A DNA stretch of 64,000 nt. It comes from Burkholderia sp. HI2500 (GTDB lineage: Bacteria > Pseudomonadota > Gammaproteobacteria > Burkholderiales > Burkholderiaceae). Below are positions 36,439 through 41,336 of the stretch, piece after piece. The notes under the pieces were generated by a model. It was not told the DNA's origin. It searched no databases and saw only the letters and a program-made list of their open reading frames with translations. Position numbers and translations under genes: made by a program. The DNA is taken from NCBI RefSeq assembly GCF_002223055.1, contig NZ_NKFL01000009.1, forward strand, positions 32,029 through 96,028, written 5' to 3'. Positions within the stretch are counted from its first letter, which is position 1. Each line of letters starts with the position of its first letter.

Positions 36439-37146
36439 ATGATGCCGATTGATCTTCCCATGTTGGCGACCACGTGCGCGCCTGCTGTTCATCCGGTGAC
36501 ACTCACGGCCGTCGTGCGCAATGAATCCGGCGCGAATCCGTTCGCGATCGGCGTGGTAGGCGGGCGCCTCGTGCGGCAGCCGCGCACGCAGGCCGAAGCC
36601 GAATCGACGGTCGCTGCGCTCGAGCGAGCGGGATGGAACTACAGCGTGGGCTTGGCGCAGGTGAACCGCTCGAACTTTGTCCGTTATGGCTTGGCTGGCG
36701 GCGGTGCTTTCGATCCGTGCGCGAACCTGCGCGCGGGTAGCGAGATTCTTGCCGATTGCTACCGGCAAGCGTCGATCACCTCGGGTCCAGGACAACGCGC
36801 GTTGCGCCAAGCACTGTCCTGCTATTACAGCGGCAACACCAGTCGCGGATTCAAGGTCGAGAAGAGCGGCACGAGCTACGTGCAGCGCGTGGTCGCCCAG
36901 GCGCAGCCTGCGACGCAACAGGAGGGTACAGCGAAATTGACGACAGCGCCGGCCGCCGGCAGGTCGGCAGCGCCGGTCGACACGTCGGCCGCCACGGTGC
37001 CGCCAATCGAGGTTGTGCGCGACGCGTCTACCGTTCGACGCGTGAAGCGTACGACCACGGGGGAGGCCCCCGCGGTGGCGCCGGCGAAGGGCTCTGGATG
37101 GGACGTATTTGGGGATTTCGGGGCGACTAAGGAGAACCGGGAGTGA
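36439..37146 (+). CDS. virB1: VirB1 lytic transglycosylase
   Basis: 235 residues, no obvious long signal peptide. The SLT domain has VRNESGANPFAIGV with the catalytic Glu (~29), WNYSVGLAQVNRSNF, and CANLRAGSEILADCY, LSCYYSGNTSRGF, the form of VirB1 proteins. The tail (~165-235) is Ala/Thr/Val-rich and its last 45 codons are duplicated downstream (37320-37458). It cuts peptidoglycan for the T4SS. Overlaps the following small frame by 4 bp (GTGA). Confidence 0.88.
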   Translation: MMPIDLPMLATTCAPAVHPVTLTAVVRNESGANPFAIGVVGGRLVRQPRTQAEAESTVAALERAGWNYSVGLAQVNRSNFVRYGLAGGGAFDPCANLRAGSEILADCYRQASITSGPGQRALRQALSCYYSGNTSRGFKVEKSGTSYVQRVVAQAQPATQQEGTAKLTTAPAAGRSAAPVDTSAATVPPIEVVRDASTVRRVKRTTTGEAPAVAPAKGSGWDVFGDFGATKENRE

Positions 37147-37337
37147 ACGATCTGACCGATTCGAAGGGCTTGTACAGCTTCCACGTTACCAAGAGCGACG
37201 AGAACAACACCGGCGAGAAGATCTCCGGCAACACGATGGTGATCGGCGATACCGGGGAAGGTAAGACCACGCTGCTGCAGGAGATGCTGGTGGGCTTTCT
37301 GGAACGGTGCAACACGAAGAATCGAGGTGGTGCGTGA
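37143..37337 (+). pseudogene. Duplicated fragment of virB4 (Walker A region) in a 64-codon frame
   Basis: The frame encodes 64 residues starting with GTG behind AAGGAG, overlapping the virB1 stop. Nucleotides 37161-37319 closely match virB4 40122-40283 (roughly 85% by eye): KGLYSFHVTKSDENNTGEK and the P-loop GDTGEGKTT followed by QEMLVGFLER. The fragment differs by small in-frame indels and keeps the reading frame. After it, sequence reverts to a second copy of the virB1 tail. No ATPase could be formed. It is probably a recombination scar, though translation is possible since the ribosome site and frame are kept. Confidence 0.85.
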
Positions 37338-37458
37338 CGCGTCAGCTGGTCGGTGCGTGAGGTGCGACCACGGTGAGGGGCCTGCGGGGGCGCTGGCAAA
37401 CGGTTCCGGATGGAACGTGTTTTGGAAATTTTGGAACGACGAAGGAGAACAGGGAATG
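37320..37458 (+). repeat. Duplicated virB1 3' tail (copy of 37006-37143)
   Basis: From ATCGAGGT at 37321 the sequence follows the virB1 end (37006 on): GTGCG-GACGCGTC, CGACCACGG, GGNTCNGGATGG and AAGGAGAAC-GGGA, ending at the virB2 ATG. About three-quarters of bases match by eye, so the duplication is old. The virB1 frame is open through into virB2 but has no independent start; virB2 starts at 37456. Confidence 0.85.
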
Positions 37459-37779
37459 AAATACGTGACGAAATTGTTTGGACCGCTCGACCGGCGGTGT
37501 ATGCGTGACACGCTGCTGGCGCTTGTTTTGAGTGGCGTCGCTGTCGCGGCCCAGGCGGGCGGCCTGGATGCAGGAAAGCAGGGGCTGTCGACCCTCCAGA
37601 TCTGGCTGTATGCGTGCGCGGCGATCATTGCGACGTGCTACTTGATTTATTCGGGGGTGCAGTGTTTTGAGGGGGGAGGCAACTGGGTGAAGGAATTCGG
37701 CACATCGTGCGTCAAAGTGTTTTTCTGCGGCGCGGCCGTGGTGCTGGCCGGTTACCTGTTCACGGCCGGCGGCAGCTGA
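37456..37779 (+). CDS. virB2: VirB2 T4SS pilin
   Basis: 107 residues from ATG 37456 (GGAGAACAGGGA upstream). Signal peptide (TLLALVLSGVAVAAQAGG), then two hydrophobic helices (IWLYACAAIIATCYLIYSGVQC and VFFCGAAVVLAGYLFTA) separated by a short loop, as in TrbC/VirB2 pilins. It would be the subunit of the conjugative T-pilus. The sequence upstream is a copy of the virB1 tail, so its ribosome site is a duplicate of that before the virB4 fragment. Confidence 0.82.
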   Translation: MKYVTKLFGPLDRRCMRDTLLALVLSGVAVAAQAGGLDAGKQGLSTLQIWLYACAAIIATCYLIYSGVQCFEGGGNWVKEFGTSCVKVFFCGAAVVLAGYLFTAGGS

Positions 37780-37785
37780 TCGACG

Positions 37786-38238
37786 ATGAGCACCGAGAAG
37801 ACTTTGTACCCGTCCTATGCGGGGCTGAACCGAACCGCGATGCAGTGGGGTATCCCGTTGCTGCCTGGACTGGTCGTGTTCGTCGTGAGCATTTTCACGT
37901 CGCTCATCGGTGCGGCATTCATGGGGCCTGGCGGTTTTGTCCTCGGGCTGCCGGGCGTGCCGATCCTCATGTATTTCAAGCGCGTCTGCGCGACCGATGA
38001 CCAGGCCCTGCGGATCACGTGGTTCGAGCTCATCTGCGTGTTGCGTCGCAAGAACGCATCGTTGTTCGGCAAGACGTACACGCTTGCACCGATGCGTTAC
38101 GGGCGCTCGTACCGTCAAATCCGCGAGCAGCTCGCGCGACCGCTGTCGTTGGAGTTGCAAGAGCGATTCATTGCGCGCTTCAAGGCCGAGCTTGAGCATG
38201 AACGATTGGCGATGGAAGCTGAGACGGGGAGCTATTAA
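37786..38238 (+). CDS. virB3: VirB3
   Basis: 150 residues. N-terminal LYPSYAGLNRTAMQWG, then two membrane segments (LLPGLVVFVVSIFTSLIGAA and a following PGGFVLGLPGVPILMYF), a typical short VirB3 domain; the C-terminal ~70 residues are charged and longer than in classic VirB3 (about 100 aa). It works at the inner membrane with VirB4. Stop overlaps the next gene (TAATG). Confidence 0.82.
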   Translation: MSTEKTLYPSYAGLNRTAMQWGIPLLPGLVVFVVSIFTSLIGAAFMGPGGFVLGLPGVPILMYFKRVCATDDQALRITWFELICVLRRKNASLFGKTYTLAPMRYGRSYRQIREQLARPLSLELQERFIARFKAELEHERLAMEAETGSY

Positions 38239-38873
38239 TGACGCATGCGATGGGGAAACTCTGCGGTGAGCGAGCGCACATCATGGCCGACCAACTTATG
38301 GGAAAAAGCCACGCGTCTCCATTGGCCGATGGTCCGTGCACCCGGGCGATGCTTGATGTGTGGGCGGCCGATTTCGATCGCGCCTGTATCCGCGAGCGTC
38401 GCTTCGAAAGGGGCGGCCTCGTGGGGGCCGCATGTGTATTCGGCGCGATCGCCGTGGTTTTGGCGATGTTCGCCGATCCGTTCGGAGGATGGCGTGGGCT
38501 CTGGGTCTGCGGTTCCCGAGAGGTATTCATTGTCGACTGCGTGGTCGTGGGGAGGGCGTTCTGGCTTTGGGCGTTGGCAGTCATGTTGATGATCGGTACG
38601 TGTCTGATGCTGGCTGTTCCCGATCACGAGTCGCCGCCGCGGAATCCGTATGCGCCGTTGGATGATCAAGACAGCATGCATGCGATGGCGATGCTGGCGG
38701 GGCTTCTGCATGAACCGCTGTTGATTGCGTATCTCGACGGCGTGTTGCACCAGGAGCGCGATCTGACGTTGCATGACCTGCGCCTGTTGCGTGACGCGTC
38801 GACATCCGCTTTGCACTCGAAATGGCAAACCATGGCGCGTGACCTGAGAGTGCTCGAGGAGGATGTGCTGTGA
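38238..38873 (+). CDS. Unknown membrane protein between virB3 and virB4
   Basis: 211 residues. Two membrane segments (GLVGAACVFGAIAVVLAMFA and WLWALAVMLMIGTCLMLAV). The N-terminus has Cys-containing helical parts and the C-terminus (~150-211) is helical and charged. No family recognised. Tightly coupled to virB3 (TAATG). T4SS loci of this plasmid group carry extra membrane proteins; it may be a system-specific assembly or exclusion factor. Confidence 0.55.
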   Translation: MTHAMGKLCGERAHIMADQLMGKSHASPLADGPCTRAMLDVWAADFDRACIRERRFERGGLVGAACVFGAIAVVLAMFADPFGGWRGLWVCGSREVFIVDCVVVGRAFWLWALAVMLMIGTCLMLAVPDHESPPRNPYAPLDDQDSMHAMAMLAGLLHEPLLIAYLDGVLHQERDLTLHDLRLLRDASTSALHSKWQTMARDLRVLEEDVL

Positions 38874-38924: not shown

Positions 38925-41336
38925 GTGCTGACGAGTGAACAGCTGAGAAATCAGCCCGCTATCGAAGATCTGATGCCGAAAATCGGTCGACCGATCTCGG
39001 AGATCGTCACGAGCTACGACGACGATCGCGCGGCGATCGTCGTGCGCGTGCCGGGTATGCCGTTCGAATCGGTGCCGACCGCAGAAATCGAATCGCATTT
39101 CGAGGCGCTGAATCGGTTTCTTGCGGGGCTCGTGATGGACAAGGGCAACCGGCTGGGAATCTGGTGCACGTTCACGCGCCGGCGCGTGACGTTCGACGAC
39201 GAATACGCGTTCTCGTCGCGCTTCATGCAGCGGCTGTCCGACAAGTATCTCAAGCGGTTTAAGAACGGGAATTATTTCGAGAACGCGTTCTACATCACGT
39301 TTCTCCTGAAGGGCGACGATCTGCACGAGCTGATCCCGGAACTCCACGAGATGGCCGAGACGATCGATAAGGCGCTGGCGATCTACGATCCGACCTTCCT
39401 GCGGGTGGTGGAGCGGCACGGTGTGATGTTCAGCGAACCGCTCGCATTTTTTGCCGAGCTGATGAACGGTGTAGACGAGCCGATTCCGGTAACGGCGTCG
39501 ACTGGGCGAGAAATCATTCCGTCGGCCGTGCATCACTTCCATTACGACGTGCTGGAGATCCGGGCCGCGCACAAGACGCGCTATTGCATGTGCTACGACC
39601 TGAAAGATCTGCCGCCGATGGGATGGGGTCATCTGAACCCGATGCTGACGCTGCCGGTCGAGTTCACGTTGACGATCTCTTTCATTGGGATGGGAAACTA
39701 CGAGGCACTGTCTAAAATCGCCGATCAGGAAAACAAACTCAGTTCGGTAGAGGACAAGGCGGTGCATCAGCGCGAGGAGCTGAAGGAAGCGCAGGCGCTG
39801 ATAGCGGGGCGTGATCTGGCGTTTGGCGAATACCATGCAGCGCTCGTCGTGTATGGAGATACGGCGAAGAAGGCGATCGACAACGGTGCGTTTGCCTCGA
39901 GCAAGTCACTGAATGAGTGTGGTCTGCGGTGGATCAAGGCGACGCTATCGGCGCCGATTACGTTCATGAGCCAACTGCCGGGCGCGAAGCACAAGCCGAG
40001 GCCGATGCCGAAATCGACCCGCAACCTCGCGTCGACGTTCAGCCTGCACAACTATTCGACAGGCAAGGCGCGCGGCAACCCGATCGGCGACGGGACGGCC
40101 GTGATCCCGCTGCAGACCGAGTCGAAGGGGTTGTACAGCTTTAACTTCCACGTCACGAAGAACGACGAGAACAATACCGGCGAGAAGATCGCTGGCCACA
40201 CGGTTGCGATCGGGGATACCGGGGAAGGCAAGACCACGCTGCAGGAGATGCTGGTTGGCTTTCTGGAACGGTTCAACACGAAGATGTTCGCGCTCGATAT
40301 GGATCGCAGTATGCAGATCTTTATCGAGGAGCTCGGGGGTGTCTATTTTCCGCTACGTGCGGGCGAGCGCACGGGCCTGGCACCGTTTGCGTTGCCGAAG
40401 ACGGCACGCAATCTTGAATTCCTGTACGAGCTGATCGGTTCGTGCGGGCGCGATGAGCACGGACGGCTGAGTGTTGAAGATACGCGCGCGATCAAGCTGG
40501 GTGTCGACGCGGTGTATTCGCTCACGAACGTGCGTGACCGGCGTTTCTCTCGTCTGCTCGAAAGCATTCCGGATACGGGTGAGGGTTGTCTGCGCCGGCG
40601 TCTCGGCATCTGGTGCGAATCCGAGGGCGGGCGTTTTGCATGGGCGCTCGACAACGCGTCGGATACCGAGATCGATATGACGCAGTTCCACCGAATCGGG
40701 TTCGACGTCACGGACTTTTTGAAGAAAGACTATGCCCCGACCGAGCCTGTGCTGGCGTTCCTGCTGTATCTGAAGAGCCTGATGCAAGTGCGCGGTGGCC
40801 TGCTCGCGACGATTATCGAAGAATTCTGGCTGCCGCTGGCGTACCCGACGACGCAGAAGATGATCGAGCGCAGCCTGCGCGTCGGCCGGCGCGCGGACGA
40901 GTTCGTGATTCTCGTATCGCAGACACCTGACGAAGTACTCAAGAGCCCGATCTGCGGCGCCATCATGCAGCTCACGGCAACCAAGATCTTCCTGCCGAAC
41001 CCGAGCGCTACGCGCGCGAGCTACGGTGAATTGATGACAGATCGCGAGTTCGTTGAATTCAAGCGTATCTGCACGAAGGGCTCGCATACGTTCCTGATCA
41101 AGCAGGGCAACCAGTCGGCATTCGCGACGCTCGATCTGCGCGGCTTTTCGGACGAACTGTCGGTGCTGTCAGCGAACCTCGAGAACGTGGCGATTTGGGA
41201 GGAGGTAGGCATCGAGGCCGACGGTGACCCGGAGTTGCGCATGGAACTGTTCCAGGCACGCCGAAAGGGTAAGCGCGATCGTAAGCCAATGTCGGCGGAT
41301 GTCGGTCGTACTTCGTCGATGGGAGCGCACGCGTGA
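38925..41336 (+). CDS. virB4: VirB4 T4SS ATPase
   Basis: 803 residues, normal length. The start is GTG 38925, after a purine-rich GGGGGAAA. The C-terminal ATPase has Walker A IGDTGEGKTT (~430-438), Walker B LLATIIEEFWLPL (~625) and the SSxxRK-like RSLRVGRRADEFVILVSQTP. The N-terminal CagE/TrbE-like domain covers ~1-400. VirB4 supplies energy for T4SS assembly and DNA export. Walker A region codons (40122-40283) are duplicated at 37161-37319. Stop overlaps the next gene. Confidence 0.95.
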   Translation: MLTSEQLRNQPAIEDLMPKIGRPISEIVTSYDDDRAAIVVRVPGMPFESVPTAEIESHFEALNRFLAGLVMDKGNRLGIWCTFTRRRVTFDDEYAFSSRFMQRLSDKYLKRFKNGNYFENAFYITFLLKGDDLHELIPELHEMAETIDKALAIYDPTFLRVVERHGVMFSEPLAFFAELMNGVDEPIPVTASTGREIIPSAVHHFHYDVLEIRAAHKTRYCMCYDLKDLPPMGWGHLNPMLTLPVEFTLTISFIGMGNYEALSKIADQENKLSSVEDKAVHQREELKEAQALIAGRDLAFGEYHAALVVYGDTAKKAIDNGAFASSKSLNECGLRWIKATLSAPITFMSQLPGAKHKPRPMPKSTRNLASTFSLHNYSTGKARGNPIGDGTAVIPLQTESKGLYSFNFHVTKNDENNTGEKIAGHTVAIGDTGEGKTTLQEMLVGFLERFNTKMFALDMDRSMQIFIEELGGVYFPLRAGERTGLAPFALPKTARNLEFLYELIGSCGRDEHGRLSVEDTRAIKLGVDAVYSLTNVRDRRFSRLLESIPDTGEGCLRRRLGIWCESEGGRFAWALDNASDTEIDMTQFHRIGFDVTDFLKKDYAPTEPVLAFLLYLKSLMQVRGGLLATIIEEFWLPLAYPTTQKMIERSLRVGRRADEFVILVSQTPDEVLKSPICGAIMQLTATKIFLPNPSATRASYGELMTDREFVEFKRICTKGSHTFLIKQGNQSAFATLDLRGFSDELSVLSANLENVAIWEEVGIEADGDPELRMELFQARRKGKRDRKPMSADVGRTSSMGAHA

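What the first reader, a model, noticed from the sequence alone, without database searches (positions are those of the whole stretch)
37006..37458. Segmental duplication: virB1 tail, virB4 P-loop fragment, second virB1 tail, then virB2
Between virB1 and virB2 lies a 64-codon frame whose nucleotides 37161-37319 match virB4 40122-40283 closely, including the Walker A codons. It is followed (37320-37458) by a diverged second copy of the virB1 3' end with its ribosome site. So a piece of virB4 was placed next to virB1 by duplication, and the virB1 tail was copied to reconnect virB2. The fragment keeps frame, start and ribosome site despite divergence and small in-frame indels, so it may be expressed as a peptide with a P-loop, or serve as donor for gene conversion with virB4.
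Basis: seen in the sequence. Interest (0 to 1): 0.75.

Follow-up and report, generated by a model that had tools for sequence, protein, structure and literature searches.

The report
Decaying partial duplication in conjugation operon
Between two genes of a plasmid-type DNA-transfer machine sits an old, diverged copy of a small piece of a third gene, most likely a leftover of a past copying accident rather than a working part.

Summary
Window 37154-37320 is a diverged copy of virB4 40115-40284 (148 of 164 ungapped positions identical, plus a 6-nt deletion and a 3-nt insertion); 37320-37460 is a second copy of the virB1 3' end (111 of 140, small indels). In the nearest related Burkholderia plasmids virB1's stop overlaps virB2's ATG, without the insert. 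The fragment's ribosome site, start codon and first codons are remains of a former virB2 start, not a new gene start. Shared derived bases place its origin in this lineage's own virB4, after the split from those relatives. Its branch has 7 nonsynonymous and 6 synonymous changes, against 0 and 14 between two full virB4 copies over the same codons: constraint is much relaxed. The anatomy follows from two junctions with 1-2 bp microhomology: tandem duplication plus internal deletion, or one double template switch. A near-identical 64-aa protein is recorded from another contig, so an assembly error is unlikely. Frame retention is only weakly non-random. Best reading: an ordinary decaying partial-duplication scar. 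A P-loop peptide or conversion donor has no positive support; a translated spacer is not excluded.

The parts
36439..37146 (+). virB1 (lytic transglycosylase), whole; its TGA (37144-37146) overlaps the fragment's GTG
   Evidence: SLT domain above cut-off
37005..37153 (+). virB1 tail copy 1 (coding 3' end of virB1) plus the remains of an old virB2 start
37143..37154 (+). remains of a former virB2 start: GTG and the next three codons; ribosome site just upstream at about 37132-37137
   Evidence: alignment with L021/L022 virB2 start; sequence
37143..37337 (+). 64-codon open frame carrying the virB4 fragment
37154..37320 (+). virB4-derived fragment (P-loop stretch), source 40115-40284
   Evidence: control
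37320..37460 (+). virB1 tail copy 2, frame-shifted, supplies virB2's ribosome site
   Evidence: control
37456..37779 (+). virB2 (pilin), whole
   Evidence: TrbC/VirB2 match below the curated cut-off
37786..38238 (+). virB3, whole
   Evidence: VirB3 domain
38925..41336 (+). virB4 (T4SS ATPase), whole; donor of the fragment

Best explanation
It is a decaying scar of a partial duplication inside a conjugation-type T4SS operon. In this lineage, after it split from its nearest known relatives, a stretch running from the virB1 3' end to the virB4 P-loop was copied through junctions with almost no homology: either a tandem duplication followed by a deletion inside the first copy, or a replication fork that switched template twice. 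What is left is virB1 with its own tail, the first codons of an old virB2, about 170 bp of virB4, then a second virB1 tail leading into the present virB2. virB1, virB2 and virB4 stay whole. The frame is open because it took over virB2's ribosome site and start codon and because few mutations have hit it; it has no protein-level function. Shown: anatomy, junctions, absence in the nearest relatives, order relative to the split, relaxed constraint. Inferred: the recombination route and the lack of function.
For: Absent from the nearest plasmids, where virB1 and virB2 overlap by 4 nt. The insert region in plasmids gives 9 records, 0 covering 80%, the six Burkholderia ones matching only in their full virB4. 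Junction microhomology 2 bp (37154) and 1 bp (37320), and a virB2-like start before the virB4 piece. 4 sites shared only by fragment and window virB4 against L021, L022 and L023; 19 tail sites shared by both copies against L021 and L022. Fragment branch 7 nonsynonymous and 6 synonymous against 0 and 14 for window-L021 virB4, Fisher p 0.002.
Against: The frame is intact after 13 substitutions and two indels, both multiples of three (p 0.07 against the tail's 4 gap positions). Nonsynonymous changes are somewhat fewer than neutral (P 0.03-0.14 over six settings) and 7 of 13 changes are at third positions (p 0.10). A second sequence keeps the frame too. Two of the 13 fragment-branch sites match L023 instead and were counted as parallel changes. 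No intermediate was found.
Confidence: 0.76

Rival explanations
1. Translated spacer: the peptide is irrelevant, but the open frame is kept because it carries ribosomes from virB1 (GTGA overlap) towards virB2, replacing the lost direct virB1-virB2 coupling and preventing polarity.
For: virB1 stop overlaps the fragment's start as it overlaps virB2's start in relatives; frame open, both indels in frame.
Against: The fragment stops at 37337, 118 bases before virB2's ATG, and virB2 has its own ribosome site in a start region that folds no better than shuffles (z -0.28). Frame retention is only weakly non-random.
Confidence: 0.15
2. Functional P-loop peptide: the 64-aa product binds nucleotide or interferes with VirB4.
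For: Walker A kept; an almost identical 64-aa protein is recorded elsewhere.
Against: About 55 residues of an 803-residue protein, without the rest of the ATPase domain aligned to TrwK; strongly relaxed constraint; Walker A survival chance about 0.33.
Confidence: 0.04
3. Donor for gene conversion with virB4.
For: Same replicon, about 90% identity in ungapped positions.
Against: virB4 over the same 56 codons has 0 amino-acid differences from L021, and its dS there (0.52) is not above the whole gene's (0.69). Silent conversion tracts cannot be excluded.
Confidence: 0.03
4. Assembly error.
For: The nearest related plasmids lack the insert; reads are not available here.
Against: The copies are diverged by about 10% and 20%, which misassembly does not produce; a near-identical protein with one internal difference is on another contig.
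Confidence: 0.02

Closest known systems
Partial duplications and gene remnants left by illegitimate recombination in bacterial DNA (general knowledge; PMC3411829, abstract and passages seen)
   Same: Short-range direct duplication or deletion with microhomology at the joints; a truncated, diverging gene piece beside whole genes
   Different: The confirmed Salmonella junctions in that paper have longer microhomology than the 1-2 bp here; here the piece is in frame and starts at an inherited ribosome site
VirB4 / TrwK T4SS ATPases (TIGR00929; PDB 7o41-7o43)
   Same: The fragment is a copy of the Walker A stretch of such a protein (fragment vs TIGR00929: 32.5 bits, E 2.7e-8)
   Different: About 55 of 803 residues with two indels; far below the family cut-off (643 bits)
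virB1-virB2 translational junction (ATGA overlap) of the related Burkholderia plasmids
   Same: Start codon overlapping the virB1 stop, with AGGAGAA just upstream
   Different: Here the overlapping start opens the fragment frame, and virB2 starts 310 bases later

Membership tests
Decaying partial-duplication scar | Similarity beyond chance to a gene in the same replicon | tested here: met
   Scores 224 and 108 against null maxima of 30
Decaying partial-duplication scar | Absent at the same place in close relatives | tested here: met
   L021, L022, L027, L028; more distant L023, L029
Decaying partial-duplication scar | Constraint relaxed relative to the parent gene | tested here: met
   7 N / 6 S against 0 N / 14 S, p 0.002; strict neutrality neither shown nor clearly rejected
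Decaying partial-duplication scar | Frameshifts or stops in the fragment (typical, not required for a truncated piece) | tested here: not met
   64-codon frame intact; the second virB1 tail is frame-shifted
VirB4 ATPase family | Full-length match above the family cut-off | tested here: not met
   32.5 bits against a cut-off of 643.1
Functional small protein | Purifying selection on the amino-acid sequence | tested here: inconclusive
   P(at most 7 nonsynonymous) 0.03-0.14 over six mutation settings
Functional small protein | Detected translation product | not testable with these tools
   No expression data
Gene-conversion donor | Fragment-specific variants in virB4 | tested here: inconclusive
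   0 amino-acid differences window-L021 over 56 codons; silent tracts cannot be told from common descent

The most novel reading that the evidence does not exclude
An accidental piece of virB4, by taking over virB2's start signals, became a 64-codon translated relay between virB1 and virB2, and its open frame is now kept by selection for ribosome traffic to virB2: a young gene born from a duplication scar, caught before it has a protein function.
Probability: 0.12. Interest if true: 0.45.

Novelty: new member of a known kind. Interest (0 to 1): 0.17.

Why it matters
Mostly an annotation caution: the 64-aa frame can be called as a gene, and its P-loop would invite a false function. It is also a well-resolved example of how a partial duplication can enter a dense transfer operon without breaking a gene, because its ends happened to keep virB1's stop and virB2's ribosome site.

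Tried and rejected
Intermediate with a longer duplication: the long span of the relatives' matches came from the fragment matching their full virB4, not from a longer duplication. A scan of genome contigs with VirB4 confirmed no locus; a degenerate pattern across the 37320 junction found nothing in viral contigs or genome contigs.

Codon loss in the window's virB4 after Walker A: dropped, because VirB4 of the relatives also reads GKTTLQ, so the extra leucine is an insertion in the fragment. In one search twelve further loci were scanned for the motif and only three (L020, L062, L067) gave lines; L024-L026 gave none.

Origin of the fragment from a foreign plasmid: dropped on 4 shared derived sites, although two fragment sites match L023.

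The first Fisher test (p 0.0008) counted three virB4 changes twice; one search gives 0.002.

Not examined: 117 of the 126 plasmid records were not fetched (nine were), nor the 75-79% VirB1 relatives P0003-P0006.

Papers: six searches, seen as listings only, showed no report of a virB4 fragment between virB1 and virB2, the one aimed at this, returned one paper. One paper was read in passages.

Full report
Observation. Reading and aligning the window confirms both repeats. 37154-37320 matches virB4 40115-40284: 148 identical, 16 mismatched, 9 gap positions. 37320-37460 matches the virB1 3' end 37005-37147: 111 identical, 29 mismatched, 4 gap positions. Against 300 dinucleotide-model resamples the scores are 224 and 108, null maxima 30 and 30. 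The 64-codon frame 37143-37337 exists and its GTG overlaps the virB1 stop.

Genes. virB1 has an SLT domain and virB3 a VirB3 domain above the cut-offs; virB2 matches TrbC/VirB2 below it (20.0 against 27.9 bits); virB4 has CagE_TrbE_VirB above it. virB4 also matches TIGR00929 (444.6 bits, below the curated 643.1) and the TrwK structures 7o41-7o43. All four are uninterrupted frames.

Relatives. One search gave 126 plasmid records, of which nine were fetched. The closest are L021 (B. aenigmatica) and L022, L027, L028 (B. contaminans; these three identical over the 4000 bases compared), with VirB4 95.6-95.8% identical. In all four the annotated virB1 and virB2 overlap by 4 nt, and alignment with L021 shows the window's extra stretch as an insert. 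In the more distant L023 and L029 virB1 is also directly followed by virB2. A search of plasmids with 37130-37460 gave 9 records, 0 covering 80%; the six Burkholderia ones match only in their full virB4, the other three are short P-loop-type matches. Among 65 genomes of the genus (at most five candidates scored per genome), the fragment part of the query was matched only in G000 (the window region and its virB4) and in G022, there in its virB4. In G000 itself the fragment peptide matches only itself and virB4.

Origin. The first 12 bases of the frame resemble the virB2 start of L021/L022; the sequence then turns into virB4, with 2 shared bases at the switch. The later switch from virB4 to virB1 tail shares 1 base. 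So the frame's start signals were virB2's. Two routes give the same product: (a) tandem duplication from the virB1 3' end to the virB4 P-loop (2965 bases in present coordinates, including an ORF that the relatives lack), then deletion in the first copy from about virB2 codon 4 to virB4; (b) one replication event with two template switches. Route (a) passes through an intermediate that homologous recombination would tend to collapse; route (b) does not (general knowledge). I found no intermediate and hold the two about equal.

Timing. Against L021, L022 and L023, 4 sites carry a base shared only by fragment and window virB4, and at 3 sites only the window's virB4 has changed; 2 fragment sites match L023 instead. 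In the tails 19 sites are shared by both copies against L021 and L022, 14 are changed only in copy 2 and 9 only in copy 1; 7 differ throughout, and 9 gap columns and 6 columns where L021 and L022 differ were set aside. Synonymous divergence is 0.28 fragment-virB4 (54 codons) and 0.69 window-L021 over whole virB4. So the event is later than the split from the L021/L022 group, but not recent.

Constraint. The fragment branch has 13 substitutions, 7 nonsynonymous and 6 synonymous; window vs L021 virB4 over the same stretch has 0 and 14; Fisher p 0.002 (correcting). Strict neutrality is not clearly rejected: P(at most 7 nonsynonymous) 0.03-0.14 and P(no stop in the virB4-derived codons) 0.67-0.83 over six mutation settings. 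Both fragment indels are multiples of three, against none of the tail's four gap positions (p 0.07; the alignment joins two of these into one 2-base gap). 7 of 13 changes are at third positions (p 0.10) and Walker A survival has a chance of about 0.33. The signs of frame retention are weak but point one way, and count against my reading.

Second copy. The protein search with the fragment found one protein, P0001, 64 aa, on a contig of 2205 bases, differing in one internal residue (K to R) besides the start letter. Its source is not named; it may come from another assembly of the same or a sister strain. Since the window's contig reaches at least 96,028 bases, it is a different contig. This makes an assembly artefact unlikely.

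Consequence for virB2. virB2 keeps ATG and an AAGGAGAA ribosome site from the second tail. Its start region folds no better than shuffles (z -0.28; L021 0.40, L022 -1.49). The second tail is open in virB2's frame for 71 codons, with a GTG at 37327 that would add 43 residues; the same frame is open for 26 and 60 codons in L021 and L022, so I give it little weight.

Literature. PMC3411829 (abstract and passages) reports duplications and deletions with short direct repeats at their ends in Salmonella, with longer microhomology than here. Searches were seen as listings only.

Verdict. A real, well-resolved but ordinary partial-duplication scar. The P-loop-peptide and conversion-donor readings lack positive support; a translated spacer is the most novel reading left open.

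Noticed in passing
38238-38873: A 211-aa frame between virB3 and virB4 that L021 lacks and that has no match in the plasmid collection or in Pfam and NCBIfam. Weak relatives (30-32% identity) in 6 other genomes of 299; in G152 the match lies directly downstream of virB4, in G277 about 1.4 kb downstream and with one stop.
   Followed up: partly
37327-37455: Tail copy 2 is open in virB2's frame; a GTG at 37327 overlaps the fragment's stop and would give VirB2 43 more residues.
   Followed up: partly
39012-41336 (virB4 P-loop, about 40206-40240): VirB4 of this Burkholderia group reads GKTTLQ after a GDTGEGKT or GDTGAGKT Walker A, one residue shorter than the fragment's GKTTLLQ.
   Followed up: yes
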